A DNA stretch of 23,849 bases from Saccoglossus kowalevskii (taxonomy: Eukaryota > Hemichordata > Enteropneusta > Harrimaniidae), in contig NW_003111201.1 in the NCBI RefSeq assembly GCF_000003605.2, positions 1-23,849 of the forward strand, given 5' to 3'. Each line of letters starts with the position of its first letter. Within the stretch, counting starts at the first letter, position 1. The translations under genes were made by a program, and so were the position numbers. The notes under the pieces were generated by a model, which saw only the letters and a program-made list of their open reading frames with translations, was not told where the DNA came from and did no database searches. Below, in pieces: positions 1 through 23,849 of this stretch.

Positions 1-78
1 TCAATTTCAATTTCATTTTCTAAACGTTGATGCAACCGATGCCGCCAATGGTGTTCAACTGACACACAAAGTAAAGTC
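1..78. other. Partial spacer at left window edge, with weakened terminator
   Basis: This is the 3' flank of tDNA-1, cut by the window edge. The short T-run terminator region at 68-75 reads aaag-taaa on the plus strand, so tDNA-1 lacks the TTTT that follows nearly every other copy. Nothing else is recognisable. Confidence 0.7.
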
Positions 79-152
79 TGGCCGATATGGGGTTCGAACC
101 CACGACCTCAGCGTTATTAGCACCGCGCTCTAACCTACTGAGCTAACCGGCC
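79..152 (-). tRNA. tRNA-Ile-AAT: tDNA-1, tRNA-Ile(AAT)
   Basis: Full-length cloverleaf with a 7-bp acceptor stem, anticodon loop CTAATAA and A73. It differs from the consensus by T59A in the T loop and T17A in the D loop, both in non-pairing positions, so the fold is intact. The 3' flank has only TTT runs instead of TTTT. Spacer to the right is type a-A and otherwise empty. Confidence 0.9.
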
Positions 153-547
153 ATTACGACATGCTAAAATTTCGGTAATCGTGTTTTGAAAACAAATACG
201 ATAGCATATTATTAAATCTGTGTCGTTCGAAGTGGTTATTGAAGGCTGATATTTCGTAATATGAAGTTCGCTGTATTATTTTAACTAGTTTAAGGACGCA
301 TAACTAAGTGCTTGCAGAATGCAACGTCTATTACCCACAAGATGCTGGTAGTAGAATCAGCCAATAGCGTTCAAGAGTACGCAAAGCATTTTGAGTGACC
401 TTCATGCAGATGATTGCCACGATGCCATTCGTCGCACCATTCTCACAATTTTACACTCGAGCAACAGCGTATTTTAAATTTCAATATCCAAACGTTGATG
501 CAATCAAATGCCGCCAATGGTGTTCAACAGACACACAAAATAAAGAC

Positions 548-621
548 TGGCCGATATGGTGATCGAACCCACGACCTCAGCGTTATTAGCACCGCGCTCT
601 AACCAACTGAGCTAACCGGCC
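548..621 (-). tRNA. tRNA-Ile-AAT: tDNA-2, tRNA-Ile(AAT), B-box change
   Basis: Consensus except C61A, which breaks the T-stem closing pair G53-C61 and changes the end of the B box, a TFIIIC contact. TTTT terminator present at 537-540. May be weakly transcribed. Right spacer type a-C. Confidence 0.8.
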
Positions 622-780
622 ATTACGACATGCTAACATTTCGGTAATCGTGTTTTGAAAACAAATACAATAGCACATTATAAAATCTGTGCGTTTGGAA
701 GTGGTTATTGAAGGCTGTTGTTTCGTAATTTGAAATTCGCTGTTTTATTCTAACTATTTCAAGGTCGCATAACTAAGTGC

Positions 781-793
781 TTGCAGAATGCAA
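781..793. repeat. Short perfect inverted repeat TTGCA-gaa-TGCAA (example copy)
   Basis: A 5-bp inverted repeat around GAA, conserved in nearly all spacers at the start of the conserved 240-bp stretch. C2-type spacers carry cttggagaatg and lose the symmetry. No known role. Confidence 0.5.
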
Positions 794-835
794 CTTCTAT
801 TAACCACAAAATGCTGGGAGTAAAGTCAGCCAATA

Positions 836-851
836 GCGTTCAAGAGAACGC
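836..851. repeat. Short perfect inverted repeat in spacer (example copy)
   Basis: gcgttc-aaga-gaacgc is a perfect 6-bp inverted repeat with a 4-nt loop, found at the same place in about half of the units. In the others gaacgc is gtacgc, which introduces one mismatch. It lies just left of the conserved gagtgacctacatg stretch. Function unknown. Confidence 0.6.
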
Positions 852-1015
852 AAAGCATTTTGAGTGACCTACATGCAGATGATTCCCATGATGCCATTCG
901 TCGCACTATTCTCACAATTTTACATTCGAGCAACATCGGATTTCAAATTTCATTTTCTAAACGTTGATGCAACCGATGCCGCCAATGGTGTTCAACAGAC
1001 ACACAAAGTAAAGTC

Positions 1016-1080
1016 TGGCCGGTTAGGGTTAGACCTCAGCGTTATTAGCACCGCGCTCTAACCAACTGAGCTAACCGGCC
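1016..1080 (-). pseudogene. tDNA-3, tRNA-Ile pseudogene with rewritten T arm
   Basis: Only 65 bp long. The 5' half (D arm, anticodon arm with AAT) is intact, but 19 bp covering the acceptor 3' strand and T arm are replaced by about 10 bp, so the B box and T loop are gone. The plus strand at 1021-1032 reads two exact hexamers of the vertebrate-type telomere repeat (permuted TTAGGG), and 1017-1026 is an exact inverted copy of the tRNA's own first ten bases. The terminator is also weakened (aaagtaaag). Not expected to yield tRNA. Right spacer a-A. Confidence 0.93.
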
Positions 1081-1468
1081 ATTACGACATGCTAAAATTT
1101 CGGTAATCGTGTTTTGAAAACAAATACGATAGCACATTATTAAATCTGTGTCGTTCGAAGTGGTTATTGAAGGTTGATATTTCGTAATTTGAAATTCGCT
1201 GTATTATATTAACTAGTTTAAGGACGCATAACTAAGTGCTTGCAGAATGCAACGTCTGTTACCCACAAAATGCTGGTAGTGAAATAAGCCAATAGCGTTC
1301 AAGAGAACGCAAAGCATTATGAGTGACCTACATGCAGATGATTCCCATGATGTCATTCGTCGCACTATTCTCACAATTTTACACTCGAGCAACAGCGGAC
1401 TTCAATATCCAAACGTTGATGCAACCAAATGCCGCCAATGGTGTTCAACAGACACACAAAATAAAGAC

Positions 1469-1542
1469 TGGCCAATATGGGAATCGAACCCACGACCTTA
1501 GCGTTATTAGCACCGCGCTATAACCACCTGAGGTAACCGGCC
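1469..1542 (-). tRNA. tDNA-4, degenerate tRNA-Ile(AAT)
   Basis: Full length with anticodon AAT, but G10C and G22T break two of four D-stem pairs and damage the A box. G43A breaks 27-43. C68T (G-U), C60T and T16G are also present. Likely poorly expressed or dead. tDNA-14 shares most of these changes and tDNA-20 shares three. Right spacer d-D. Confidence 0.6.
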
Positions 1543-1937
1543 ATTACGTCATGCTAGAATTTCGATCGTCGTATTATGAAAACAACTGCAATAGCACATT
1601 ATCAAATCTCTGCGTTTCAAACTAGTTATTGACGGCTGTTGTTGCATAATTTGAAATACAGAGTTTTATCCTAACTAGTTCAAGATCACATAACTAAGTG
1701 CTTGCAGAATGCAACTTCTGTTAACCACAAAATGCTGGGAGTAAAGTCAGCCAATAGCGTTCAAGAGAACGCAAAGCATTTTGAGTGACCTACATGCAGA
1801 TGATTCCCATGATGCCATTCGTCGCACTATTCTCACAATTTTACATTCGAGCAACATCGGATTTCAAATTTCATTTTCTAAACGTTGATGCAATCAAATG
1901 CCGCCATTGGTGTTCAACAGACACACAAAATAAAGAC

Positions 1938-2011
1938 TGGCCGATATGGGGATCGAACCCACGACCTCAGCGTTATTAGCACCACGCTCTAACCAACTGA
2001 GCTAACCGGCC
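1938..2011 (-). tRNA. tRNA-Ile-AAT: tDNA-5, tRNA-Ile(AAT)
   Basis: Only C27T differs from consensus, changing C27-G43 to a U-G wobble, so the fold is sound. TTTT terminator present. Right spacer a-A. Confidence 0.92.
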
Positions 2012-2398
2012 ATTACGACATGTTAAAATTTTGGTAATCGTGTTTTGAAAACAAATACGATAGCACATTATAAATCTGTGTCGTTCGAAGTGGTTATTGA
2101 AGGCTGATATTTTGTAAATTGAAATTCGCTGTATTATATTAACTAGTTTAAGGACGCACAACTAAGTGCTTGCAGAATGCAACGTCTGTTACCCACAAGA
2201 TGCTGGTAGTAAAATAAGCCAATAGCATTCAAGAGAACGCAAAGCATTATGAGTGACCTACATGCAGATGATTCCCACGATGTCATTCGTCGCACTATTC
2301 TCACAATTTTACACTCGAGCAACAGCGGACTTAAATATCCAAACGTTGGTGCAACCAAATGCCGCCAATGGTGTTCAACAGACACACAAAATAAAGTC

Positions 2399-2472
2399 TG
2401 GCCGCTATGGAGATCGAACCCACGACCTCAGCGTTATTAACACCGCGCTCAAACCAACTGAGCTAACCGGCC
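2399..2472 (-). tRNA. tRNA-Ile-AAT: tDNA-6, tRNA-Ile(AAT) with acceptor mismatch
   Basis: T67G makes a G6-G67 mismatch in the acceptor stem. C61T leaves G53-U61 in the T stem. C32T and A21T are loop changes. Anticodon AAT kept. tDNA-11 carries the same set apart from C61T. Right spacer b-B. Confidence 0.75.
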
Positions 2473-2856
2473 ATTACGTCATGCTAGAATTTCTATAATC
2501 GTATTTTGAAAACAAATGCAATAGCACATTATCAAATCTCTGCGTTTCAAAAAGGTTATTGACGACTGTTGTTACATAATTTGAAATACAGAGTTTTATT
2601 CTAACTATTTTAAGGTCGCATAACTAAGTGCTTGCAGAATGCAACGTCTATTACCCACAAGATGCTTGTAGTAAAATAAGCCAATAGCGTTCAAGAGTAC
2701 GCAAAGCATTTTGAGTGACCTACATGCAGATGATTCCCGCAATGCCATTCGACGCACTATTCTCACAATTTTACATTCGAGCAACATCGGATTTCAAATT
2801 TCATTTTCTAAACGTTGATGCAATCATATGCCGCCAATGGTGTTCAGCAGACACAC

Positions 2857-2860
2857 AAAA
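2857..2860 (-). terminator. Pol III oligo-T terminator of tDNA-7 (typical copy)
   Basis: aaaa on the plus strand is TTTT on the transcript, 7 nt after A73, preceded by a TTT run. Four or more T residues end RNA polymerase III transcription. The same element follows nearly every tRNA here; exceptions are noted with tDNA-1, 3, 41 and 45. Confidence 0.85.
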
Positions 2861-2878
2861 TAAAGACTGGCCGATATG

Positions 2879-2889
2879 GGGATCGAACC
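2879..2889 (-). promoter_or_regulatory. B box of tDNA-7 (typical copy)
   Basis: Reads GGTTCGATCCC on the sense strand, matching the internal B box that TFIIIC binds. It forms the T arm. Altered in tDNA-2, 12, 19, 36, 47 and 48 and absent in tDNA-3. Confidence 0.9.
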
Positions 2890-2922
2890 CACGACCTCAG
2901 CGTTATTAGCACCGCGCTCTAA

Positions 2923-2934
2923 CCAACTGAGCTA
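2923..2934 (-). promoter_or_regulatory. A box of tDNA-7 (typical copy)
   Basis: Reads TAGCTCAGTTGG on the sense strand, positions 8-19 of the tRNA, matching the internal A box. Damaged in tDNA-4, 14, 18, 19, 20, 23, 28, 33, 38, 40, 46 and 52. Confidence 0.9.
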
Positions 2935-3332
2935 ACCGGCCATTACGACATGCTAACATTTCGGTAATCGTGTTTTGAAAACAAATACAATAGCACATTA
3001 TAAAATCTGTGCGTTTGGAAGTGGTTATTGAAGGCTGCTGTTTCGTAATTTGAAATTCGCTGTTTTATTCTAACTATTTCAAGGTCGCATAACTAAGTGC
3101 TTGCAGAATGCAACTTCTATTAACCACAAAATGCTGGGAGTAAAGTCAGCCAATAGCGTTCAGAGACGCAAGCATTTTGAGTGACCTACATGCAGATAAT
3201 TCCCATGATGCCATTCTTCGCACTATTCTCACAATTTTACATTCGAGCAACATCGGATTTCAAATTTCATTTTCTAAACGTTGATGCAACCGATGCCGCC
3301 AATGGTGTTCAACCGACACACAAAATAAAGTC

Positions 3333-3406
3333 TGGCCGCTATGGGGATCGAACCCACGACCTCAGCGTTATTAGCACCGCGCTCTAACCAACTGAGCTAA
3401 CCGGCC
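3333..3406 (-). tRNA. tRNA-Ile-AAT: tDNA-8, tRNA-Ile(AAT)
   Basis: Only T67G differs from consensus, giving a G6-G67 acceptor mismatch shared with tDNA-6 and 11. The rest of the cloverleaf is intact. The spacer on its left (3155-3175) lacks several A residues. Right spacer b-B. Confidence 0.85.
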
Positions 3407-3801
3407 ATTACGTCATGCTAGAATTTCTATAATCGTATTTTGAAAACAAATGCAATAGCACATTATCAAATCTCTGCGTTTCAAAAAGGTTATTGACGAC
3501 TGTTGTTACATAATTTGAAATACAGAGTTTTATTCTAACTATTTTAAGGTCGCATAACTAAGTGCTTGCAGAATGCAACGTCTATTACCCACAAGATGCT
3601 GGTAGTAAAATAAGCCAATAGCGTTCAAGAGAACGCAAACCATTTTGAGTGACCTACATGCAGATGATTCCCACAATGCCATTCGTCGCACTATTCTCAC
3701 AATTTTACATTCGAGCAACATCGGATTTCAAATTTCATTTTCTAAACGTTGATGCAATCAAATGCCGCCAATGGTGTTCAGCAGACACACAAAATAAAGA
3801 C

Positions 3802-3875
3802 TGGCCGATATGGGGATCGAACCCACGACCTCAGAGTTATTAACACCGCGCTCTGACCAACTGAGCTAACCGGCC
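3802..3875 (-). tRNA. tRNA-Ile-AAT: tDNA-9, tRNA-Ile(AAT) with anticodon-stem mismatch
   Basis: G40T makes a U30-U40 mismatch in the anticodon stem. C32T and the D-loop change T20a to C are minor. AAT kept. Right spacer a-A. Confidence 0.75.
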
Positions 3876-4269
3876 ATTACGACATGCTAAAATTTCGGTA
3901 ATCGTGTTTTGAAAACAAATACGATAGCACATTATTAAATCTGTGTCGTTCGAAGTGGTTATGAAGGCTGATATTTCGTAATTTGAAATTCGCTGTATTA
4001 TTTTAACTAGTTTAAGGTCGCATAACTACGTGCTTGCAGAATGCAACGTCTATTACCCACAAGATGCTGGTAGTAGATTCAGCCAAATAGCGTTCAAGAG
4101 TACGCAAAGCATTTTGAGTGACTACATGCAGATGATTCCCACGATGCCAATCGTCGCACCATTCTCACAATTTTACACTCGAGCAAGAGCGTATTTTAAA
4201 TTTCAATATCCAAACGTTGATGCAATCAAATGCCGCCAATGGTGTTCAACAGACACACAAAATAAAGAC

Positions 4270-4343
4270 TGGCCGATATGGGGATCGAACCCACGACCTC
4301 TGCGTTATTAGCACCGCGCTCTAACCAACTGAGCTAACCGGCC
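4270..4343 (-). tRNA. tRNA-Ile-AAT: tDNA-10, tRNA-Ile(AAT)
   Basis: Only T42A differs, replacing the G28-U42 wobble by G-A in the anticodon stem. tDNA-13, 1397 bp away, has the same change and the same spacer markers, so the two are copies of one segment. Right spacer a-A. Confidence 0.83.
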
Positions 4344-4730
4344 ATTACGACATGCTAAAATTTCGGTAATCGTGTTTTGAAAACAAATACGATAGCACAT
4401 TATTAAATCTATGTCGTTCGAAGTGGTTATTGAAGGTTGATATTTCGTAATTTGAAATTCGCTGTATTATATTAACTAGTTTAAGGACGCATAACTAAGT
4501 GCTTGCAGAATGCAACGTCTGTTACCCACAATATGCTGGTAGTGAAATAAGCCAATAGCGTTCAAGAGAACGCAAAGCATTATGAGTGACCTACATGCAG
4601 ATGATTCCACGATGTCATTCGTCGCACTATTCTCACAATTTTACACTCGAGCAACAGCGGACTTAAATATCCAAACGTTGGTGCAACCAAATGCCGCCAA
4701 TGGTGTTCAACAGACACACAAAATAAAGTC

Positions 4731-4804
4731 TGGCCGCTATGGGGATCGAACCCACGACCTCAGCGTTATTAACACCGCGCTCAAACCAACTGAGCTAACC
4801 GGCC
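4731..4804 (-). tRNA. tRNA-Ile-AAT: tDNA-11, tRNA-Ile(AAT) with acceptor mismatch
   Basis: Carries T67G (G6-G67 mismatch), C32T and A21T, the tDNA-6 set without C61T. Its unit shares the 7-bp-shorter ggacttaaatatcc spacer form with that of tDNA-6. Right spacer b-B. Confidence 0.78.
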
Positions 4805-5198
4805 ATTACGTCATGCTAGAATTTCTATAATCGTATTTTGAAAACAAATGCAATAGCACATTATCAAATCTCTGCGTTTCAAAAAGGTTATTGACGACTG
4901 TTGTTACATAATTTGAAATACAGAGTTTTATTCTAACTATTTTAAGGTCGCATATCTAAGTGCTTGCAGAATGCAACGTCTATTACCCACAAGATGCTGG
5001 TAGTAAAATAAGCCAATAGCGTTCAAGAGAACGCAAAGCATTTTGAGTGACCTACATGCAGATGATTCCCACAATGCCATTCGTCGCACTATTCTCACAA
5101 TTTTACATTCGAGCAACATCGGATTTCAAATTTAATTTTCTAAACGTTGATGCAACCGATGCCGCCAATGGTGTTCAACAGACACACAAAATAAAGTC

Positions 5199-5272
5199 TG
5201 GCCGATATGGGGATCAAACCCACGACCTCAGCGTTATTAGCACCGCGCTCTAACCAACTGAGCTAACCAGCC
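5199..5272 (-). tRNA. tRNA-Ile-AAT: tDNA-12, tRNA-Ile(AAT) lacking C56
   Basis: C56T removes an almost invariant T-loop base that pairs with G19 and is central to the B box. C4T leaves U4-G69. Anticodon AAT kept. Transcription and folding are probably reduced. Right spacer a-A. Confidence 0.7.
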
Positions 5273-5666
5273 ATTACGACATGCTAAAATTTCGGTAATC
5301 GTGTTTTGAAAACAAATACGATAGCACATTATTAAATCTGTGTCGTTCGAAGTGGTTATTGAAGGCTGATATTTCGTAATTTGAAATTCGCTGTATTATT
5401 TTAACTAGTTTAAGGACGCATAACTACGTGCTTGCAGAATGCAACGTCTATTACCCACAAGATGCTGGTAGTAGAATCAGCCAATAGCGTTCAAGAGTAC
5501 GCAAAGCATTTTGAGTGACTACATGCAGATGATTCCCACGATGCCAATCGTCGCACCATTCTCACAATTTTACACTCGAGCAAGAGCGTATTTTAAATTT
5601 CAATATCCAAACGTTGATGCAATCAAATGCCGCCAATGGTGTTCAACAGACACACAAAATAAAGAC

Positions 5667-5740
5667 TGGCCGATATGGGGATCGAACCCACGACCTCTGC
5701 GTTATTAGCACCGCGCTCTAACCAACTGAGCTAACCGGCC
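5667..5740 (-). tRNA. tRNA-Ile-AAT: tDNA-13, tRNA-Ile(AAT)
   Basis: Identical to tDNA-10, with T42A as the only change. Second copy in the 1397-bp repeat. Right spacer a-A. Confidence 0.83.
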
Positions 5741-6128
5741 ATTACGACATGCTAAAATTTCGGTAATCGTGTTTTGAAAACAAATACGATAGCACATTAT
5801 TAAATCTGTGTCGTTCGAAGTGGTTATTGAAGGTTGATATTTCGTAATTTGAAATTCGCTGTATTATATTAACTAGTTTAAGGACGCATAACTAAGTGCT
5901 TGCAGAATGCAACGTCTGTTACCCACAATATGCTGGTAGTGAAATAAGCCAATAGCGTTCAAGAGAACGCAAAGCATTATGAGTGACCTACATGCAGATG
6001 ATTCCCATGATGTCATTCGTCGCACTATTCTCACAATTTTACACTCGTGCAACAGCGGACTTCAATATCCAAACGTTGATGCAACCAAATGACGCCAATG
6101 GTGTTCAACAGGCACACAAAATAAAGAC

Positions 6129-6202
6129 TGGCCAATATGGGAATCGAACCCACGACCTTAGCGTTATTAGCACCGCGCTATAACCAACTGAGGTAACCGG
6201 CC
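6129..6202 (-). tRNA. tDNA-14, degenerate tRNA-Ile(AAT)
   Basis: C68T, C60T, G43A, G22T and G10C: the D stem loses two pairs, the A box is damaged and 27-43 is unpaired. Same lineage as tDNA-4. Right spacer d-D, the same rare spacer as tDNA-4 and 20, so gene and flank travel together. Confidence 0.6.
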
Positions 6203-6597
6203 ATTACGTCATGCTAGAATTTCGATCGTCGTATTATGAAAACAACTGCAATAGCACATTATCAAATCTCTGCGTTTCAAACTAGTTATTGACGGCTGTT
6301 GTTACATAATTTGAAATACAGAGTTTTATCCTAACTAGTTCAAGGTCACATAACTAAGTGCTTGCAGAATGCAACTTCTGTTAACCACAAAATGCTGGGA
6401 GTAAAGTCAGCCAATAGCGTTCAAGAGAACGCAAAGCATTTTGAGTGACCTACATGCAGATGATTCCCATGATGCCATTCGTCGCACTATTCTCACAATT
6501 TTACATTCGAGCAACATCGGATTTCAAATTTCATTTTCTAAACGTTGATGCAATCAAATGCCGCCAACGGTGTTCAACAGACACACAAAATAAAGAT

Positions 6598-6671
6598 TGG
6601 CCGATATGGGGATCGAACCCACGACCTCAGCGTTATTAGCACCGCGCTCTAACCAACTGAGCTAACCGGCC
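6598..6671 (-). tRNA. tRNA-Ile-AAT: tDNA-15, tRNA-Ile(AAT), exact consensus
   Basis: All 74 bases match the consensus. The trailer has one change (agattgg), leaving the TTTT intact. Right spacer a-A. Confidence 0.96.
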
Positions 6672-7066
6672 ATTACGACATGTTAAAATTTCGGTAATCG
6701 TGTTTTGAAAACAAATACGATAGCACATTATTAAATCTGTGTCGTTCGAAGTGGTTATTGAAGGCTGATATTTCGTAATTTGAAATTCGCTGTATTATTG
6801 TAACTAGTTTAAGGACGCATAACTAAGTGCTTGCAGAATGCATCGTCTGTTAAGCACAAGATACTGGTAGTAAAATAAGCCAATAGCCTTCGAGAAAACG
6901 CAAAGCATTTTGAGTGACCTACATGCAGATGATTCCCACAACGCCATTCGTCGCACTATTCTCACAATTTTACATTCGAGCAACAGCGGATTTCATATTT
7001 CATTTTCCAAACGTTGATGCAACCGAATGCAGCCAACGGTGTTCAACAGACACACAAAATAAAGAC

Positions 7067-7140
7067 TGGCCGATATGGGGATCGAACCCACGACCTCAGC
7101 GTTATTAGCATCGCGCTCTAACCAACTGAGCTAACCGGCC
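7067..7140 (-). tRNA. tRNA-Ile-AAT: tDNA-16, tRNA-Ile(AAT) with anticodon-stem mismatch
   Basis: Only G29A differs, making A29-C41 in the middle of the anticodon stem. Shared with tDNA-18 and 21. Right spacer b-B2, with a small deletion in the cggctgttac stretch shared with tDNA-18. Confidence 0.8.
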
Positions 7141-7532
7141 ATTACGTCATGCTGGAATTTCTATAATCGTATTTTGAAAACAAATACGAGAGCACATTAT
7201 CAAATCTCTGCGTTTCAAAAATGTTATTGACGGCTGTTACATAATTTGAAATACAGAGTTTTATTCTAACTAGTTCAAGGTCGCATAACTAAGTGCTTGC
7301 AGAATGCAACTTCTATTAACCACAAGATGCTGGTAGTAGAATCAGCCAATATCGTTCAAGAGAACGCAAAGCAATTTGAGAGACCTACATGCAGATGATT
7401 CCCACGATCCCATTCGTCTCACTATTCTCACAATTTTACATTCGAGCAACAGCGGATTTCATATTTCATTTTCCAAACGTTGATGCAACCGAATTCCGCT
7501 AACGGTGTTCAACAGACACACAAAATAAAGAC

Positions 7533-7605
7533 TGGCCGATATGGGGATCGAACCCACGATCTCAGCAATTTAGCACCGCGCTCTAACCAACTGAGCTAAC
7601 CGTCC
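7533..7605 (-). pseudogene. tDNA-17, tRNA-Ile pseudogene with broken anticodon loop
   Basis: 73 bp. The anticodon region reads GCTAAATTGC instead of GCTAATAACGC: one base is lost and the loop is rewritten, so AAT is no longer framed by a proper 7-nt loop. C3A adds an acceptor mismatch (A3-G70), and the variable loop is changed. B box intact, so it could still be transcribed. Right spacer a-A. Confidence 0.85.
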
Positions 7606-8000
7606 ATTACGACATGTTAAAATTTCGGTAATCGTGTTTTGAAAACAAATACGATAGCACATTATTAAATCTGTGTCGTTCGAAGTGGTTATTGAAGGCT
7701 GATATTTCGTAATTTGAAATTCGCTGTATTATTGTAACTAGTTTAAGGACGCATTACTAAGTGCTTGCAGAATGCAACGTCTGTTAAGCACAAGATACTG
7801 GTAGTAAAATAAGCCAATAGCCTTCGAGAAAACGCAAAGCGTTTTGAGTGACCTACATGCAGATGATTCCCACAACGCCATTCGTCGCACTATTCTCACA
7901 ATTTTACATTCGAGCAACAGCGGATTTCATATTTCATTTTCCAAACGTTGATGCAACCGAATGCCGCCAACGGTGTTCAACAGACACACAAAATAAAGAC

Positions 8001-8074
8001 TGGCCGATATGGGGATCGAACCCACGACCTCAGCGTTATTAGCATCGCGCTCTAACCAACTGAGAAAACCGGCC
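8001..8074 (-). tRNA. tDNA-18, degenerate tRNA-Ile(AAT)
   Basis: G29A in the anticodon stem plus A9T and G10T, which break the first D-stem pair and change the A box start. Acceptor, T arm and AAT are intact. Right spacer b-B2. Confidence 0.65.
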
Positions 8075-9865: not shown

Positions 9866-9939
9866 TGGCCGATATGGGGATCGAACCCATGACCTCAGCG
9901 TTATTAGCACCGCGCTCTAACCAACTGAGCTAACCGGCC
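9866..9939 (-). tRNA. tRNA-Ile-AAT: tDNA-22, tRNA-Ile(AAT)
   Basis: Only G49A differs, which turns the G49-U65 wobble into A-U, so pairing improves. Right spacer is b-C1. First position of the 1875-bp repeat. Confidence 0.92.
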
Positions 9940-11740: not shown

Positions 11741-11814
11741 TGGCCGATATGGGGATCGAACCCACGACCTCAGCGTTATTAGCACCGCGCTCTAACCAAC
11801 TGAGCTAACCGGCC
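11741..11814 (-). tRNA. tRNA-Ile-AAT: tDNA-26, tRNA-Ile(AAT), exact consensus
   Basis: Matches the consensus throughout; equivalent of tDNA-22 without its G49A. Right spacer b-C1. Confidence 0.96.
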
Positions 11815-13615: not shown

Positions 13616-13689
13616 TGGCCGATATGGGGATCGAACCCACGACCTCAGCGTTATTAGCACCGCGCTCTAACCAACTGAGCTAACCGGCC
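13616..13689 (-). tRNA. tRNA-Ile-AAT: tDNA-30, tRNA-Ile(AAT), exact consensus
   Basis: Matches the consensus throughout. First gene of the third 1875-bp repeat copy. Right spacer b-C1. Confidence 0.96.
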
Positions 13690-15860: not shown

Positions 15861-15872
15861 AGCTAACCGGTC
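15861..15872 (-). pseudogene. tDNA-35, 12-bp remnant of a tRNA-Ile gene
   Basis: Only the first 12 tRNA bases survive (with C2A). A deletion of about 160 bp joins the spacer motif ctcacaat directly to this stub, removing the anticodon, T arm, terminator and 3' flank. The 5' flank to the right is present as a diverged a-C type spacer, unlike its neighbours. Confidence 0.85.
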
Positions 15873-16267
15873 ATTACGTCATGCTAAAATTTCGGTAATC
15901 GTGTTTTGAAAACAAATACAATAGCACAATATAAAAGCTGTGCGTTTCGAAGTGGTTCGTGAAGGCTGTTGTTTACTAATTTGAAATTCACTGTTTTATT
16001 CTAACTATTTTAAGGTCGTATAACTAAGTGCTTGCAGAATGCAACGTTTATTACCCACAAGATGCTGGTACTAAAGTCCGCTAATAGCATTCAAGAGAAC
16101 GCAAAGCATTTTGAGTGACCTACATGCAGATGATTCCCTCAATGCCATTCGTCGCACTATTCTCACAATTTTGCATTCGAGCAACAGCGGATTTCAAATT
16201 TCATTTTCCAAACTTTGATGCAACCGAATGCCGCCATTGGTTTTCAAAAGATACACAAAATAAAGAC

Positions 16268-16340
16268 TGGCCATATGGGGATCGAACACACGACCTCAGC
16301 GTTATTAGCACCGCGCTCTAACCAACTGAGCTAACCGGCC
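16268..16340 (-). pseudogene. tDNA-36, tRNA-Ile(AAT) with acceptor deletion
   Basis: 73 bp: one base is missing from the 3' acceptor strand (ggccatatgg in place of ggccgatatgg), so the acceptor stem cannot pair in full register. G52T breaks a T-stem pair in the B box. Anticodon arm and D arm are intact. Right spacer a-A. Confidence 0.7.
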
Positions 16341-16735
16341 ATTACGACATGCTAAAATTTCGATAATCGTGTTTTGAAAACAAATAGGATAGCACATTAT
16401 TAAATCTGTCTCGTTCGAAGTGGTTATTGAAGGCTGATATTTCGTAATTTGAAATTCGCTGTATTATTTTAACTAGTTTAAGGACGCATAACTAAGTGCT
16501 TGCAGAATGCAACGTCTGTTACCCACAAGATGCTGGTAGTAAAATAAGCCAATAGCGTTCAAGATTACGCAAAGCATTTTGAGTAACCTACATGCAGATG
16601 ATTCCCACAAGGCCATTCGTCGCACAATTCTCACAATTTTACACTCAAGCAACAGCGGATTTTAAATTTCAATATCCAAACGTTGATGCAACCAAATGCC
16701 GCCAATGGTGTTCAACAGACACACAAAATAAAGAC

Positions 16736-16809
16736 TGGCCGATATGGGGATCGAACCCACGACCTCAGCGTTATTAGCACCGCGCTCTAACCAACTGAGC
16801 TAACCGGCC
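16736..16809 (-). tRNA. tRNA-Ile-AAT: tDNA-37, tRNA-Ile(AAT), exact consensus
   Basis: Matches the consensus throughout. Right spacer b-B. Start of the 938-bp dimer block. Confidence 0.96.
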
Positions 16810-17204
16810 ATTACGTCATGCTCGAATTTCTATAATCGTATTTTGAAAACAAATGCAATAGCACATTATCAAATCTCTGCGTTTCAAAAAGGTTATTGAC
16901 GACTGTTGTTACATAATTTGAAATACAGAGTTTTATTTTAACTATTTTAAGGTCGCATAACTAAGTGCTGGCAGAATGCAACGTCTATTACCCACAAGAT
17001 GCTGGTAGTAAAGTAAGCCAATAGCGTTCAAGAGTACGCAAAGCATTTTGAGTGACCTACATGCAGATAATTCCCACAACGCCATTCGTTGCACTATTAT
17101 CACAATTTTACATTCAAGCAACAGCGGATTTCAAATTTCATTTTCCAAACGTTGATGCAACCGAATGCCGCCAATGGTGTTCAACAGATCCGCAAAATAA
17201 AGAC

Positions 17205-17278
17205 TGGCCGATATGGGGATCGAACCCACGACCTCAGCGTTATTAGCAGCGCGCTCTAAACAAATGAGCTAACCGGCC
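17205..17278 (-). tRNA. tDNA-38, degenerate tRNA-Ile(AAT)
   Basis: G15T, G19T and G29C, with the linked agatccgcaaaat 3' flank. Loss of G19 and a C29-C41 mismatch argue against a stable tRNA. Identical to tDNA-40. Right spacer a-C2. Confidence 0.62.
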
Positions 17279-17673
17279 GTTACGTCATGCTATAATATCG
17301 GTAATCGTGTTTTGAAAACAAATACAAGAGCATATTATTAAATCTGTGCTGTTCGAAGTGGTTATTGAAGGCTGTTGTTTTGTAATTTAAAATTCGCTGT
17401 TTCATTCTAACTATTTTAAGGTCGCATAACTAAGTGCTTGGAGAATGCAACGTCTATTACCCACAAGATGCTGGTAGTAAAAGCAGCCAATAGCGTTCAA
17501 GAGAACGCAAAGCATTTTGAGTGACCTACATGCAGATGATTCCCACGATGCCATTCGTCGCACCATTCTCACAATTTTACACTAGAGCAACAGCGGATTT
17601 TAAATTTCAATATCCAAACGTTTATGCAATCAAATGCCGCCAATGGTGTTCAACAGACACACAAAATAAAGAC

Positions 17674-17747
17674 TGGCCGATATGGGGATCGAACCCACGC
17701 CCTCAGCGTTATTAGCACCGCGCTCTAACCAACTGAGCTAACCGGCC
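17674..17747 (-). tRNA. tRNA-Ile-AAT: tDNA-39, tRNA-Ile(AAT)
   Basis: Only T47G in the variable loop differs; all stems and loops are sound. Same as tDNA-45. Right spacer b-B. Confidence 0.92.
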
Positions 17748-18142
17748 ATTACGTCATGCTAGAATTTCTATAATCGTATTTTGAAAACAAATGCAATAGC
17801 ACATTATCAAATCTCTGCGTTTCAAAAAGGTTATTGACGACTGTTGTTACATAATTTGAAATACAGAGTTTTATTCTAACTATTTTAAGGTCGCATAACT
17901 AAGTGCTTGCAGAATGCAACGTCTATTACCCACAAGATGCTGGTAGTAAAATAAGCCAATAGCGTTCAAGAGAACGCAAAGCATTTTGAGTGACCAACAT
18001 GCAGATGATTCCCACGATGCCATTCGTCGCACTATTCTCACAATTTTACATTCGAGCAACAGCGGATTTCAAATTTCATTTTCCAAACGTTGATGCAACC
18101 GAATGCCGCCAATGGTGTTCAACAGATCCGCAAAATAAAGAC

Positions 18143-18216
18143 TGGCCGATATGGGGATCGAACCCACGACCTCAGCGTTATTAGCAGCGCGCTCTAAACA
18201 AATGAGCTAACCGGCC
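18143..18216 (-). tRNA. tDNA-40, degenerate tRNA-Ile(AAT)
   Basis: Same G15T, G19T, G29C set as tDNA-38, 938 bp away. Right spacer a-C2. Confidence 0.62.
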
Positions 18217-18287
18217 GTTACGTCATGCTATAATTTCGGTAATCGTGTTTTGAAAACAAATACAATAACATATTATTAAATCTGTGC

Positions 18288-18297
18288 GGTTCGAAGT
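18288..18297 (+). other. B-box-like motif in C2 spacer, opposite strand
   Basis: GGTTCGAAGT matches the first eight bases of a canonical B box (GGTTCGANTCC). It is on the plus strand, inside the 5' flank of tDNA-40, and recurs at the same place in the spacer after tDNA-52. Most A, C and C1 spacers keep a TTCGAAGTG core. No A box or cloverleaf accompanies it, so it is at most an isolated TFIIIC site. Confidence 0.25.
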
Positions 18298-18605
18298 GGT
18301 TATTGAAGGCTGTTGTTTTGTAATTTAAAATTCGCTGTTTCATTCTAACTATTTTAAGGTCGCATAACTAAGTGCTTGGAGAATGCAACGTCTATTACCC
18401 ACAAGATGCTGGTAGTAAAATCAGCCAATAGCGTTCAAGAGAACGCAAAGCATTTTGAGTGACCTACATGCAGATGATTCCCACGATGCCATTCGTCGCA
18501 CCATTCTCACAATTTTACACTAGAGCAACAGCGGATTTTAAATTTCAATATCCAAACGTTGATGCAATCAAATGCCGCCAATGGTGTTCAACAGACACAC
18601 AAAAT

Positions 18606-18610
18606 AAAAA
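18606..18610 (-). terminator. Second, longer T-run next to tDNA-41
   Basis: The trailer of tDNA-41 has TTTTT starting 2 nt after A73, in addition to the usual TTTT at 18601-18604. Expected to end transcription almost at the mature 3' end. Confidence 0.7.
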
Positions 18611-18611
18611 C

Positions 18612-18685
18612 TGGCCGATATGGGGATCGAACCCACGACCTCAGCGTTATTAGCACCGCGCTCTAACCAACTGAGCTAACCGGCC
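18612..18685 (-). tRNA. tRNA-Ile-AAT: tDNA-41, tRNA-Ile(AAT), exact consensus
   Basis: Matches the consensus and has an unusually strong double terminator. Right spacer b-C, a combination not seen elsewhere in the window. Confidence 0.96.
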
Positions 18686-19080
18686 ATTACGTCATGCTAG
18701 AATTTCTATAATCGTATTTTGAAAACAAATGCAATAGCACATTATAAAATCTGTGCGTTTGGAAGTGGTTATTGAAGGCTGTTGTTTCGTAATTTGAAAT
18801 TCGCTGTTTTATTCTAACTATTTCAAGGTCGCATAACTAAGTGCTTGCAGAATGCAACGTCTATTACCCACAAGATGCTGGTAGTAGAATCAGCCAATAG
18901 CGTTCAAGAGTACGCAAAGCATTTTGAGTGACCTACATGCAGATGATTCCCACGATGCCATTCGTCGCACCATTCTCACAATTTTACACTCGAGCAACAG
19001 CGTATTTTTAATTTCAATATCCAAACGTTGATGCAATCAAATGCCGCCAATGGTGTTCAACAGACACACAAAATAAAGAC

Positions 19081-19154
19081 TGGCCGATATGGGGATCGAA
19101 CCCACGACCTCAGCGTTATTAGCACCGCGCTCTAACCAACTGAGCTAACCGGCC
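19081..19154 (-). tRNA. tRNA-Ile-AAT: tDNA-42, tRNA-Ile(AAT), exact consensus
   Basis: Matches the consensus. Right spacer b-B, cattagcaaatctc form, with two A-runs one base short (19190-19235). Confidence 0.96.
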
Positions 19155-19547
19155 ATTAGAACATGCTAGAATTTCTATAATCGTATTTTGAAACAAATGC
19201 AATAGCACATTAGCAAATCTCTGCGTTTCAAATTGTTATTGACGACTGTTGTTACATAATTTGAAATACAGAGTTTTATTCTAACTATTTTAAGGTCGCA
19301 TAACTAAGTGCTTGCAGAATGCAACGTCTATTACCCACAAGATGCTGGTAGTAAAATAAGCCAATAGCGTTCAAGAGTACGCAAAGCATTTTGAGTGACC
19401 TACATGCAGATGATTCCCACGATGCCATTCGTCGCACCACTCTCACAATATTACACTCGAGCAACAGCGTATTTTTAATTTCAATATCCAAACGTTGATG
19501 CAATCAAATGCCGCCAATGGTGTTCAACAGACACACAAAATAAAGAC

Positions 19548-19621
19548 AGGCCGATATGGGGATCGAACCAACGACCTCAGCGTTATTAGCACCGCGCTCT
19601 AACCAACTGAGCTAACCGGCC
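19548..19621 (-). tRNA. tRNA-Ile-AAT: tDNA-43, tRNA-Ile(AAT) with altered discriminator
   Basis: A73T and G51T, the same pair as tDNA-24. The next unit also matches that of tDNA-25 (gcgttttgag, gatgatttccacg), so at least one unit's length was copied between about 10.8 and 19.5 kb. Right spacer a-A. Confidence 0.72.
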
Positions 19622-20016
19622 ATTACGACATGCTACAATTTCGGTAATCGTGTTTTGAAAACAAATACGATAGCACATTATTAAATCTGTGTCGTTCGAA
19701 GTGGTTATTGAAGGCTGATATTTCGTAATTTGAAATTCGCTGTATTATTGTAACTAGTTTAAGGACGCATAACTAAGTGCTTGCAGAATGCAACGTCTAT
19801 TACCCACAAGATGCTGGTAGTAGAATCAGCCAATAGCGTTCAAGAGTACGCAAAGCGTTTTGAGTGACCTACATGCAGATGATTTCCACGATGCCATTCG
19901 TCGCACCATTCTCACAATTTTACACTCGAGCAACAGCGTATTTTAATTTTCAATATCCAAACGTTGATGCAATCAAATGCCGCCACTGGTGTTCAACAGA
20001 CACACAAAATAAAGAC

Positions 20017-20090
20017 TGGCCGATATGGGGATCGAACCCACGACCACAGCGTTATTAGCACCGCGCTCTAACCAACTGAGCTAACCGGCC
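20017..20090 (-). tRNA. tRNA-Ile-AAT: tDNA-44, tRNA-Ile(AAT)
   Basis: Only A44T at the edge of the variable loop differs; stems are intact. Right spacer a-C2. Confidence 0.92.
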
Positions 20091-20472
20091 ATTACGACAT
20101 GCCAAAATTTCAGTAATCGTGTTTTGAAAACAAATGCAATTGCACATTATTAAATCTGTGCGTTTCGAAGTGGTTATTGAAGGCTGTTGTTTTGTAATTT
20201 AAAATTCGCTGTTTCATTCTAACTATTTTAAGGTCGCATAACTAAGTGCTTGGAGAATGCAACGTCTATTACCCACAAGATTCTGGTAGTAAAATCAGCC
20301 AATAGCTTTCAAGAGAACGCAAAGCATTTTGAGTGACCTACATGCAGATGATTCCCACGATGCCATTCGTCGCACCATTCTCACAATTTTACACTAGAGC
20401 AACTGCGGATTTTAAATTTCAATATCCAAACGTTGATGCAATCAAATGCCGCCAATGGTGTTCAACAGACAC

Positions 20473-20478
20473 AAAAAA
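20473..20478 (-). terminator. T6 terminator of tDNA-45
   Basis: A c-to-a change extends the usual TTTT to TTTTTT, a stronger Pol III stop than in the other units. Confidence 0.75.
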
Positions 20479-20485
20479 TAAAGAC

Positions 20486-20559
20486 TGGCCGATATGGGGA
20501 TCGAACCCACGCCCTCAGCGTTATTAGCACCGCGCTCTAACCAACTGAGCTAACCGGCC
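20486..20559 (-). tRNA. tRNA-Ile-AAT: tDNA-45, tRNA-Ile(AAT)
   Basis: Only T47G differs, as in tDNA-39, 2812 bp to the left. Right spacer b-B. Confidence 0.92.
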
Positions 20560-20954
20560 ATTACGTCATGCTAGAATTTCTATAATCGTATTTTGAAAAC
20601 AAATGCAATAGCACATTATCAAATCTCTGCGTTTCAAAAAGGTTATTGACGACTGTTGTTACATAATTTGAAATACAGAGTTTTATTCTAACTATTTTAA
20701 GGTCGCATAACTAAGTGCTTGCAGAATGCAACGTCTATTACCCACAAGATGCTGGTAGTAAAATAAGCCAATAGCGTTCAAGAGAACGCAAAGCATTTTG
20801 AGTGACCTACATGCAGATGATTCCCACGTTGCCATTCGTCGCACTATTCTCACAATTTTACATTCGAGCAACAGCGGATTTCAAATTTCATTTTGCCAAA
20901 CGTTGATGCAACCGAATGCCGCCAATGGTGTCAACAGATCCGTAAAATAAAGAC

Positions 20955-21029
20955 TGGCCGATATGGGGATCGAACCCACGACTTCAGCGTTATTAGCAGC
21001 GCGCTCTAAACAAATGAGCTAACCGGGCC
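20955..21029 (-). pseudogene. tDNA-46, damaged tRNA-Ile(AAT)
   Basis: 75 bp: an extra base in the 5' acceptor strand (aaccgggcc in place of aaccggcc) shifts the pairing register. It also has G15T, G19T, G29C and G45A. Equivalent of tDNA-40 at +2812, with further decay, including agatccgtaaaat in the 3' flank. Right spacer a-C2. Confidence 0.7.
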
Positions 21030-21423
21030 ATACGACATGCCAAAATTTCAGTAATCGTGTTTTGAAAACAAATGCAATTGCACATTATTAAATCTGTGCG
21101 TTTCGAAGTGGTTATTGAAGGCTGTTGTTTTGTAATTTGAAATTCGCTGTTTCATTCTAACTATTTTAAGGTCGCATAACTAAGTACTTGGAGAATGCAA
21201 CGTCTATTACCCACAAGATGCTGGTAGTAGTATCAGCCAATAGCGTTCAAGAGTACGCAAAGCATTTTGAGTGACCTACATGCAGATGATTCCCACGATG
21301 CCATTCGTCGCACCACTCTCACAATTTTACACTCGAGCAACAGCGTATTTTTAATTTCAGTATCCAAACGTTGATGAAATCAAATGCCGCCAATGGTGTT
21401 CAACAGACACACAAAATAAAGAC

Positions 21424-21497
21424 TGGCCGATATGGGGATGGAACCAACGACCTCAGCGTTATTAGCACCGCGCTCTAACCAACTGAGCTAACCGGCC
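21424..21497 (-). tRNA. tRNA-Ile-AAT: tDNA-47, tRNA-Ile(AAT), T arm altered
   Basis: G57C in the T loop and B box, and G51T in the T stem. G57C is shared only with the next gene, tDNA-48. Right spacer a-A. Confidence 0.7.
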
Positions 21498-21892
21498 ATT
21501 ACGACATGCTAAAATTTCGGTAATCGTGTTTCGAAAACAAATACGATAGCACATTATTAAATCTGTGTCGTTCGAAGTGGTTATTGAAGGCTGATATTTC
21601 GTAATTTGAAATTCGCTGTATTATTGTAACTAGTTTAAGGACGCATAACTAAGTGCTTGCAGAATGCAACGTCTATTACCCATAAGATGCTGGTAGTAGA
21701 ATCAGCCAATAGCGTTCAAGAGTACGCAAAGCATTTTGAGTGACCTACATGCAGATGATTTGCACGATGCCATTCGTCGCACCATTCTCACAATTTTACA
21801 CTCGAGCAACAGCGTATTTTAAATTTCAATATCCAAACGTTGATGCAATCAAATGCCGCCACTGGTGTTCAACAGACACGCAAAATAAAGAC

Positions 21893-21966
21893 TTGCCGAT
21901 ATGGGGATGGAACCCACGACCTCAGCGTTATTAGCACCGCGCTCTAACCAACTGAGCTAACCGGCC
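21893..21966 (-). tRNA. tRNA-Ile-AAT: tDNA-48, tRNA-Ile(AAT), T loop and acceptor altered
   Basis: C72A as in tDNA-29 (+8745 bp) plus G57C as in neighbouring tDNA-47. AAT and D arm are intact. Right spacer a-A, near-identical to 13222-13615. Confidence 0.7.
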
Positions 21967-22360
21967 ATTACGACATGCTAAAATTTCGGTAATCGTGTTT
22001 TGAAAACAAATACGATAGCACATTATTAAATCTGTGTCGTTCGAAGTGGTTATTGAAGGCTGATATTTCGTAATTTGAAATTCGCTGTATTATTTTAACT
22101 AGTTTAAGGACGCATAACTAAGTGCTTGCAGAATGCAACGTCTATTACCCACAAAATGCTGGGAGTAAATTCAGCCAATAGCGTTCAAGAGAACGCAAAG
22201 CATTTTGAGTGACCTACATGCAGATGATTCCCATGATGCCATTCGTCGCACTATTCTCACAATTTTACATTCGAGCAACATCGGATTTCAAATTTCATTT
22301 TCTAAACGTTGATGCAACCGATGCCGCCAATGGTGTTCAACAGACACACAAAATAAAGAC

Positions 22361-22434
22361 TGGCCGATATGGGGATCGAACCCACGACCTCAGCGTTATT
22401 AGCACCGCGCTCTAACCAACTGAGCTAACCGGCC
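22361..22434 (-). tRNA. tRNA-Ile-AAT: tDNA-49, tRNA-Ile(AAT), exact consensus
   Basis: Matches the consensus. Equivalent of tDNA-30 at +8745. Its 5' spacer is cut to 142 bp by a deletion. Confidence 0.96.
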
Positions 22435-22576
22435 ATTACGTCATGCTAGAATTTCTATAATCGTATTTTGAAAACAAATGCAATAGCACATAATAAAATT
22501 TGTGCGATTCGAAGTGCTTAACGTTGATGCAATCAAATGCCGCCAATGGTGTTCAACAGACACACAAAATAAAGAC
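22435..22576. other. Truncated 142-bp spacer, deletion junction at 22520/22521
   Basis: A b-C1 spacer runs to gaagtgctta and then jumps to acgttgatgc, the 3' flank of the next gene. About 253 bp are missing: the conserved gcataactaagtgc stretch, both inverted repeats and the CCAAT motif. At most one base of homology is visible at the join. Both flanking tRNAs and the TTTT of tDNA-50 are intact. Confidence 0.9.
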
Positions 22577-22650
22577 TGGCCGATATGGGGATCGAACCCA
22601 CGACCTCAGCGTTATTAGCACCGCGCTCTAACCAACTGAGCTAACCGGCC
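22577..22650 (-). tRNA. tRNA-Ile-AAT: tDNA-50, tRNA-Ile(AAT), exact consensus
   Basis: Matches the consensus; starts only 216 bp after tDNA-49 starts. Right spacer is an a-B chimera. Confidence 0.96.
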
Positions 22651-23045
22651 ATTACGACATGCTATAATTTCGGTAATCGTGTTTTGAAAACAAATACGAT
22701 AGCACATTATTAAATCTCTGCGTTTCAAAAAGGTTATTGACGACTGTTGTTACATAATTTGAAATACAGAGTTTTATTCTAACTATTTTAAGGTCGCATA
22801 ACTAAGTGCTTGCAGAATGCAACGTCTATTACCCACAAGATGCTGGTAGTAAAATAAGCCAATAGCGTTCAAGAGAACGCAAAGCATTTTGAGTGACCTA
22901 CATGCAGATGATTCCCACGATGCCATTCGACGCACTATTCTCACAATTTTACACTCGAGCAACAGCGGATTTTAAATGTCAATATCCAAACGTTGATGCA
23001 ACCAAATGCCGCCAATGGTGTTCAACAGACACACAAAATAAAGAC

Positions 23046-23119
23046 TGGCCGATATGGGGATCGAACCCACGACCTCAGCGTTATTAGCACCGCGCTCTAA
23101 CCAACTGAGCTAACCGGCC
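23046..23119 (-). tRNA. tRNA-Ile-AAT: tDNA-51, tRNA-Ile(AAT), exact consensus
   Basis: Matches the consensus. Right spacer a-C1, with several one-base insertions near 23263-23330. Confidence 0.96.
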
Positions 23120-23516
23120 ATTGTGACATGCTCAAATTTCGGTAATCGTGTTTTGAAAACAAATCCAATAGCACATTATAAAATCTGTGCGATTCGAAGT
23201 GCTTATTGAAGACTGTTGTTTCGTAATTTGAATTTCGCTGTTTTATTCTAACTATGTCAAGGTCGCATAAACTAAGTGCTTGCAGAATGCAACGTCTATT
23301 ACACACAAGATGCAGGTAGTAGAAATCAGCCAATAGCGTTCAAGAGTACGCAAAGCATTTTGAGTGACCTACATGCAGATGATTCCCACGATGCCATTCG
23401 TCGCACTATTATCACAATTTTACATTCGAGCAACAGCGGATTTCAAATTTCATTTTCCAAACGTTGATGCAACCGAATGCCGCCAATGGTGTTCAACAGA
23501 TCCGCAAAATAAAGAC

Positions 23517-23590
23517 TGGCCGATATGGGGATCGAACCCACGACGTCAGCGTTATTAGCAGCGCGCTCTAAACAAATGAGCTAACCGGCC
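23517..23590 (-). tRNA. tDNA-52, degenerate tRNA-Ile(AAT)
   Basis: G15T, G19T, G29C and G45C, identical to tDNA-28, with the linked agatccgcaaaat flank. Right spacer a-C2, cut by the window end. Confidence 0.62.
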
Positions 23591-23849
23591 GTTACGTCAT
23601 GCTATAATTTCGGTAATCGTGTTTTGAAAACAAATACAATAGCATATTATTAAATCTGTGCGGTTCGAAGTGGTTATTGAAGGCTGTTGTTTTGTAATTT
23701 AAAATTCGCTGTTTCATTCTAACTATTTTAAGGTCGCATAACTAAGTGCTTGGAGAATGCAACGTCTATTACCCACAAGATTCTGGTAGTAAAATCAGCC
23801 AATAGCGTTTCAAAGAGAACGCAAAGCATTTTTGAGTGACCTAACATGC
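23591..23849. other. Partial C2 spacer at right window edge
   Basis: Matches the spacer at 20091-20350 until the last 50 bp, where four single-base insertions appear (cgttt, caaag, attttt, ctaac). No gene or other element seen. Confidence 0.75.

What the first reader, a model, noticed from the sequence alone, without database searches (positions are those of the whole stretch)
1..23849. A satellite-like array made of one tRNA gene: 52 tRNA-Ile(AAT) loci in 23.8 kb
Every unit has the same isoacceptor, strand and spacing, and the array runs off both ends. Known animal tandem tDNA arrays often mix isoacceptors; a single-isoacceptor, ~469-bp monomer array of this depth would be unusual. It could serve tRNA-Ile supply, act as a Pol III/TFIIIC-rich chromatin domain (boundary, clustering, condensin loading), or be a selfish satellite that carries a gene. 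Seen: copy number, order, conservation. Known: TFIIIC sites and tDNA clusters can act as insulators. Inferred: any such role here.
Basis: partly seen in the sequence, partly recalled or inferred. Interest (0 to 1): 0.8.

Follow-up and report, generated by a model that had tools for sequence, protein, structure and literature searches.

The report
Tandem array of isoleucine tRNA genes
This DNA is a long row of similar 469-base units, each carrying one isoleucine tRNA gene (many of them damaged), and other tRNA genes in the same genome are laid out in a similar way, so it belongs to a habit already reported in a few other organisms.

Summary
The array is real. The 23,849-bp window is one whole contig (C550) of an unnamed 572-Mb assembly. 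Only 17 of 50 pass my structural rules, while 49 of 50 keep a TTTT terminator. The tRNA block is less diverged than the spacer (0.027 against 0.067; 46 of 50 units). Linkage between variants decays within about 150 bp, a sign of exchange between units.

Three tRNA-Ile genes outside the array have its exact consensus. About 290 units are estimated genome-wide.

Very similar layouts are in print (Phytophthora infestans, Hydractinia). Verdict: a member of the tandem tDNA array kind, most likely an unequal-exchange gene satellite with weak selection on the tRNA. No chromatin role was tested.

The parts
1..23849 (-). tandem array of ~469-bp units, nearly all with one tRNA-Ile(AAT) gene; fills the whole contig C550
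   Evidence: TRF periods 469/471; 51 BLAST loci; window = whole contig
79..152 (-). tRNA-Ile(AAT), structurally intact by my rules but without TTTT within 40 nt downstream
1032..1080 (-). truncated tRNA: the stretch with the B box is replaced by GGTTAGGGTTA (+ strand 1021-1031)
1938..2011 (-). structurally intact tRNA-Ile(AAT)
2868..2941 (-). intact tRNA-Ile(AAT), consensus sequence
6598..6671 (-). intact tRNA-Ile(AAT), consensus sequence
9866..9939 (-). structurally intact tRNA-Ile(AAT)
   Evidence: best Rfam score, 63.4 bits
11273..11346 (-). intact tRNA-Ile(AAT), consensus sequence
11741..11814 (-). intact tRNA-Ile(AAT), consensus sequence
13616..13689 (-). intact tRNA-Ile(AAT), consensus sequence
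16736..16809 (-). intact tRNA-Ile(AAT), consensus sequence
17674..17747 (-). structurally intact tRNA-Ile(AAT)
18612..18685 (-). intact tRNA-Ile(AAT), consensus sequence
19081..19154 (-). intact tRNA-Ile(AAT), consensus sequence
20017..20090 (-). structurally intact tRNA-Ile(AAT)
20486..20559 (-). structurally intact tRNA-Ile(AAT)
22361..22434 (-). intact tRNA-Ile(AAT), consensus sequence; one of a close pair 216 bp apart
22577..22650 (-). intact tRNA-Ile(AAT), consensus sequence; the other of the close pair
23046..23119 (-). intact tRNA-Ile(AAT), consensus sequence
23517..23590 (-). defective tRNA carrying a recurrent haplotype (canonical positions 15, 19 and 29 altered); all three changes are in 5 units, two of them in a sixth
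15861..16169 (-). ~310-bp partial unit; keeps only 12 nt of the 5' end of the tRNA gene (15861-15872)
861..880 (-). one copy of a conserved spacer block (ATCTGCATGTAGGTCACTCA); exact at 44 places in the window, 248 in the genome
775..794 (-). one copy of a second conserved spacer block (GTTGCATTCTGCAAGCACTT, unit columns 417-436)

Best explanation
This is one of several tandem arrays in the same genome in which a Pol III gene (here tRNA-Ile(AAT)) and its ~395-bp spacer form a repeat unit. Shown: every typed locus is the same isoacceptor; single units and runs of up to six units recur at many distances; linkage between variants decays within about 150 bp; the tRNA block is less diverged than the spacer; about a third of copies are structurally intact by my rules. 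Inferred: an ordinary tRNA-Ile gene was tandemly duplicated, unequal exchange amplified and scrambled the units, and short-tract gene conversion mixes them. Weak purifying selection keeps damaged tRNA alleles from becoming common but does not remove them. The array probably supplies some tRNA-Ile from its intact copies and is otherwise surplus, behaving as a gene satellite.
For: Unit structure. High-identity unit pairs at lags of 2 to 37 units, with a 6-pair run at lag 4. Linkage r2 falls from 0.49 (<50 bp) to 0.035 (150-199 bp), and at least 19 exchanges are needed. tRNA divergence 0.0265 against spacer 0.0673, lower in 46 of 50 units; 0 of 322 spacer windows of equal length are as low (lowest 0.0282). 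No tRNA variant is in more than 6 of 50 copies, while 45 spacer variants are in 10 or more. Singletons are as frequent in the tRNA as in the spacer (29 in 74 sites against 121 in 395). 17 of 50 intact, 49 of 50 with TTTT. The consensus equals three tRNA-Ile genes on C128 outside the array. Similar layout for tRNA-Arg, tRNA-Cys, tRNA-His, 5S and a second tRNA-Ile array. The His array shows the same contrast (0.030 against 0.080, lower in 34 of 37 units).
Against: Among 52 distinct tRNA variants, 29 are structure-breaking against 32.5 expected at random (P = 0.11), so selection on tRNA structure itself is not shown. Two spacer blocks are more conserved than the tRNA (0.0125 and 0.0115), so low divergence alone does not prove selection on the gene. 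With the truncated unit included the tRNA was 13th of 469 windows for diversity, and 13% of windows have no more variants in 3 or more copies than the tRNA has (11). Units are related, so the Wilcoxon and Fisher P values are optimistic. Transcription was not measured.
Confidence: 0.75

Rival explanations
1. Dosage amplification: the array was selected and is kept to supply large amounts of tRNA-Ile(AAT), for example in the germ line or during rapid growth.
For: 17 of 50 copies are intact and 49 of 50 keep a terminator. The tRNA block is less diverged than the spacer. About 290 units are estimated genome-wide.
Against: 33 of 50 copies are defective by my rules, and a haplotype with three damaging changes is in 5 units. 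Three consensus tRNA-Ile genes exist outside the array. For Entamoeba arrays the authors argue that such numbers are not needed and are unrelated to codon usage (PMC2652664, passages).
Confidence: 0.17
2. Chromatin element: the repeated A/B boxes recruit TFIIIC/Pol III so that the array acts as an insulator, clustering or condensin-loading domain, whatever the tRNA product.
For: A box intact in 38 of 50 and B box in 43 of 50 copies, more than intact tRNAs (17 of 50). A boundary role is proposed for the human tRNA VNTR (PMC4041453, title and passages).
Against: The box counts are about what the mean divergence of 0.0265 per site gives for 8-9 specified sites (roughly 40 and 39 of 50; my arithmetic), so no special retention of promoters is seen. 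No occupancy data exist here.
Confidence: 0.05
3. Assembly artefact: the array was built or inflated by the assembler.
For: The contig is array from end to end with no unique flank, and so are the ends I read of the related contigs C1199, C1898 and C2006. Read depth could not be seen.
Against: Units differ by about 9% on average and the longest exact repeat is 552 bp. The same unit recurs on at least four contigs. Other tRNA and 5S arrays have a similar layout. Copy number, and whether contigs are alternative haplotypes, stay uncertain.
Confidence: 0.02
4. Tandemised tRNA-derived SINE rather than a real tRNA gene.
For: A tRNA-like head with a ~395-bp body.
Against: The tRNA consensus is identical to three tRNA genes outside the array, Rfam scores reach 63 bits, TTTT starts 8 nt after the tRNA, and no other RNA family reaches its gathering score. 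Dispersed single copies with target-site duplications were not looked for.
Confidence: 0.01

Closest known systems
Phytophthora infestans tRNA tandem arrays (PMC9584435; passages)
   Same: Head-to-tail arrays of one tRNA gene with ~0.5-kb units (271 tRNA-Cys(GCA) copies, 513-nt unit, one chromosome); ~64% of tRNA genes lie in arrays of the same gene; growth by unequal crossing-over proposed.
   Different: An oomycete; copies described as little diverged and numbers backed by read depth; 36% are in units with two or three tRNA genes. Here two thirds of tRNA copies are defective by my rules. Sequence kinship was not tested.
Hydractinia ncRNA tandem arrays (PMC11067881; section 14 read; other passages)
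   Same: [quoted passage not shown] 15.7-18.7% of the assemblies is tandem repeat.
   Different: Its two assemblies (406 Mb/4840 scaffolds and 565 Mb/7767 scaffolds) are not this one (572 Mb/4830 contigs). Kinship was not tested, and isoacceptor make-up per array was not in the text I read.
Entamoeba tRNA arrays (PMC2652664; passages)
   Same: tRNA genes in long tandem arrays; some units are named for one tRNA gene only.
   Different: Units hold up to 5 tRNA genes, with short tandem repeats in E. histolytica/E. dispar; Ile(AAT) is listed in units such as [WI]; no clear evidence of pseudogenes in the surveys.
Arabidopsis tRNA-Cys cluster (PMC10701932; passages)
   Same: ~420-bp units each with one tRNA gene, 84-94% identity, whole-unit copy variation.
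   Different: Only 4-6 units, overlaps Helitron annotations, reported as silenced though not completely.
Human 1q23.3 tRNA VNTR (PMC4041453; passages)
   Same: tRNA genes inside a tandem repeat.
   Different: 7.3-kb unit with five tRNA genes of four amino acids on both strands, bound by CTCF.

Membership tests
tandem tDNA array (Entamoeba / P. infestans / Hydractinia type) | head-to-tail units of near-constant length, each with at least one tRNA gene | tested here: met
   469-bp period, 51 loci, one strand; one partial unit lacks the gene
tandem tDNA array (Entamoeba / P. infestans / Hydractinia type) | spacers as well as genes are similar between units | tested here: met
   mean pairwise unit identity 0.911
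tandem tDNA array (Entamoeba / P. infestans / Hydractinia type) | several isoacceptors of the genome are organised this way | tested here: met
   Ile (two kinds), Arg, Cys, His and 5S; capped searches and short pieces, so which isoacceptors are not arrayed is unknown
tandem tDNA array (Entamoeba / P. infestans / Hydractinia type) | copies are mostly functional genes | tested here: inconclusive
   17 of 50 intact by my structural rules; expression unknown
tandem tDNA array (Entamoeba / P. infestans / Hydractinia type) | copy number supported by reads or an independent assembly | not testable with these tools
   no reads available
satellite DNA | long arrays that fill contigs, with exchange between units | tested here: met
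   window = whole contig; linkage decay and duplicated units
satellite DNA | heterochromatic or centromeric/telomeric location | not testable with these tools
   no chromosome map; one TTAGGG hexamer in the window, 4.2 expected
human-type tRNA VNTR with CTCF boundary role | kb-scale unit with several tRNA genes | tested here: not met
   one tRNA per 469-bp unit
human-type tRNA VNTR with CTCF boundary role | CTCF binding | not tested
   no CTCF motif scan was run
tRNA-derived SINE | tRNA head diverged from real tRNA genes | tested here: not met
   consensus identical to three tRNA genes outside the array
tRNA-derived SINE | dispersed copies with target-site duplications | not tested
   not searched

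The most novel reading that the evidence does not exclude
In this genome many Pol III gene families may live in single-gene satellites in which damaged tRNA alleles are allowed to spread to several copies but not to become common. The arrays would then be an evolving reservoir (a mutation-selection balance within a repeat), and a few genes outside the arrays would carry the essential supply. The two spacer blocks that are even more conserved than the tRNA would mark a bound element specific to the array.
Probability: 0.15. Interest if true: 0.6.

Novelty: new member of a known kind. Interest (0 to 1): 0.3.

Why it matters
Arrays of one tRNA gene with many distinguishable units are a good natural test of how selection and gene conversion act on repeated genes, and of how many copies a cell needs. 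This one adds a case where the same genome holds arrays of several tRNA genes plus genes outside the array identical to its consensus. It does not by itself show a new mechanism or function.

Tried and rejected
Rejected: hidden coding content (no closed ORF of 100 aa or more under the bacterial code); a second structured RNA in the unit (in 10878-12300 only tRNA, and a SCARNA7 match of 15.8 bits, far below its gathering score of 65); telomeric origin (one TTAGGG in the window against 4.2 expected); a clean higher-order repeat (identity by lag is patchy). Special retention of promoter boxes over tRNA structure was considered and not supported (with my arithmetic). G:C to A:T singletons are in excess in the tRNA (14 of 43 sites against 21 of 151, P = 0.012), more so at CpG (7 of 14 against 6 of 36, P = 0.029) than elsewhere (7 of 29 against 15 of 115, P = 0.15), so I do not claim transcription-linked mutation. 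Single-sequence folding of one consensus tRNA did not give the cloverleaf as its best fold (z = -1.72); the Rfam model scores it at 62 bits.

Led nowhere: exact spacer patterns in viral contigs and genome contigs gave 0 matches. A 469-bp query on the own genome had candidates that could not be scored. Passages of PMC4833346 held nothing on tRNA arrays. PMC7919458 gave Drosophila tRNA clusters only (passages).

Dropped rows: the truncated unit (u49) was left out and of the low-divergence ranking; it is and in the identity figures. The 16-mer ranking printed counted gaps as differences and is replaced by the gap-free ranking. In one search the untyped first locus of the His array and the last incomplete unit were not used (37 units compared; one search lists 39 genes).
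Full report
OBSERVATION. The window is a tandem array. TRF finds a 469-bp period over positions 4-15859 and 15861-22520 and 471 bp over 22520-23849. BLAST with the tRNA consensus finds 51 tRNA-Ile(AAT) loci, all on the minus strand: 50 full-length and one truncated. Rfam's tRNA model finds 50 and ARAGORN lists 48. Two spacings, 216 and 778 bp, break the rhythm. The window is the whole of contig C550 in an unnamed 572,110,611-base assembly with 4830 contigs.

ANATOMY. The unit has a 74-nt tRNA gene and about 395 bp of spacer. By rules I set (all 21 stem pairs standard, listed invariant bases kept, anticodon AAT, no gap), 17 of 50 full-length copies are intact. The A box fits in 38 of 50, the B box in 43 of 50, and a TTTT run within 20 nt downstream is present in 49 of 50. 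These rules may be stricter than a working tRNA needs. A haplotype with three damaging changes (canonical positions 15, 19, 29) is in 5 units, and two of those changes are in a sixth.

EVOLUTION OF THE UNITS. Mean pairwise identity is 0.911, ranging from 0.811 to 0.998. Unit pairs of 0.965 identity or more occur at many lags, with the longest run at lag 4 (six pairs, u21-u26 with u25-u30). Linkage between common variants drops from r2 0.49 below 50 bp to 0.035 at 150-199 bp, and the four-gamete test needs at least 19 exchanges. This fits unequal exchange plus short-tract conversion (inference). Divergence from consensus is 0.0265 in the tRNA and 0.0673 in the spacer, lower in the tRNA in 46 of 50 units; none of 322 spacer windows of 74 columns is as low, the lowest being 0.0282. 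Singletons are as frequent in the tRNA as in the spacer (29 in 74 sites against 121 in 395, P = 0.17), but no tRNA variant exceeds 6 of 50 copies while 45 spacer variants reach 10 or more. So new tRNA variants arise but do not become common. Against a simple reading, structure-breaking variants are not significantly depleted (29 of 52 against 32.5 expected, P = 0.11), 13% of windows have no more variants in 3 or more copies than the tRNA, and two spacer blocks are more conserved than the gene (0.0125 and 0.0115). Units are related, so all P values are optimistic.

THE REST OF THE GENOME. An exact spacer 20-mer occurs 248 times. The capped list shows 44 in the window, 21 on C1199, 20 on C1898 and 15 on the first part of C2006; C2006 (32.8 kb) can hold only about 70 units, so further contigs must carry some. 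Scaling by 51 loci to 44 matches gives about 290 units, a crude figure that ignores possible haplotype copies. The ends of C1199, C1898 and C2006 that I read are array. The 42-nt 5' part of the gene occurs 252 times. C636 has 34 of these and is another tRNA-Ile(AAT) array, with spacings of 195 and 336-354 bp in the stretch read and 490 bp elsewhere in the list; several of its units match this one at 75-77% over 275-288 columns that include the tRNA and about 200 bp upstream of it. C128 (785 kb) carries three tRNA-Ile genes 819 and 1382 bp apart with the exact consensus tRNA; only the tRNA matches the array unit there. I read 2.5 kb of that contig.

I fetched 20 stretches of 10 kb from contigs chosen arbitrarily (ten of them numbered next to C550), of which 3 were wholly N. 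Of the 17 with letters, one (C2500) is a tRNA-His array with 39 genes in 10 kb. Six further contig starts of 1.5 kb had none. The tRNA model on the own genome had 25,204 first-look candidates, of which only 63 were scored: 29 lie on C237 and 22 on C926. The pieces I cut are tRNA-Arg(TCG) on C237 (3 genes), C1937 (2) and C3006 (2), and tRNA-Cys(GCA) on C926 (5), C682 (3) and C4368 (4); C3484, C4103 and C4826 showed one tRNA each. So C237 and C926 are long arrays, and the others are short runs in the pieces read. 5S rRNA is in tandem on C3485, C2212 and C3801 (18,217 candidates, 47 scored). The His array shows the same contrast of gene and spacer (0.030 against 0.080, lower in 34 of 37 units).

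INTERPRETATION. The best-supported account is a gene satellite: a tRNA unit amplified and scrambled by unequal exchange, with weak selection that keeps damaged tRNA alleles rare. Supply from the intact third is plausible; a chromatin role is possible and untested.

COMPARISON WITH PRINT. P. infestans: about 64% of tRNA genes in arrays of the same gene, including 271 tRNA-Cys copies with a 513-nt unit (PMC9584435, passages). Hydractinia: tRNAs for all 20 amino acids and other ncRNAs in arrays (PMC11067881, section 14). Its assembly sizes do not match this genome, and I did not test kinship. Entamoeba (PMC2652664, passages), Arabidopsis tRNA-Cys (PMC10701932, passages), human VNTR (PMC4041453, passages) and a survey of eukaryotic tDNA clusters (PMC2888827, passages) complete the picture. 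I ran ten paper searches and saw no paper on this very array in their listings; the library holds open-licence papers only. That the tRNA looks animal-like is my recollection and comes from no call.

VERDICT. Real, well-formed, and a new member of a known kind. Interest is modest, and higher only if the array turns out to be a silent reservoir beside working genes elsewhere, or if the conserved spacer blocks prove to be bound.

Noticed in passing
window 1017-1032: The truncated tRNA has 20 nt replaced by GGTTAGGGTTA, which looks like a telomere repeat or a fold-back copy of the gene's own 5' end (GGCCGGTTAG); a possible template-switch scar.
   Followed up: partly
L014 (C2500:1-10000): In the tRNA-His array 10 of 39 listed genes have anticodon ATG instead of GTG; the commonest such form looks damaged in the anticodon stem by eye.
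   Followed up: partly
L001, L003, L005, L006, L018: These sampled stretches (three are short-period satellites by TRF) have CpG observed/expected of 0.02-0.06, whereas the window has 1.24 and the His array 1.19; other satellite stretches (L002, L009, L015) have 0.76-0.98, so the contrast is not general.
   Followed up: no
window, unit columns 323-362 and 417-442 (e.g. 861-880 and 775-794): Two spacer blocks are more conserved than the tRNA itself; the second contains the short interrupted palindrome TTGCAGAATGCAA. Function unknown.
   Followed up: partly
G000 contigs C3485, C2212, C3801: 5S rRNA genes lie in tandem with two main spacings, about 1139 and 1579 bp.
   Followed up: no
L049 (C636:5200-7100): A second tRNA-Ile(AAT) array with mixed 195- and 336-354-bp spacing, related to the window unit in the tRNA and part of the upstream spacer.
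   Followed up: partly
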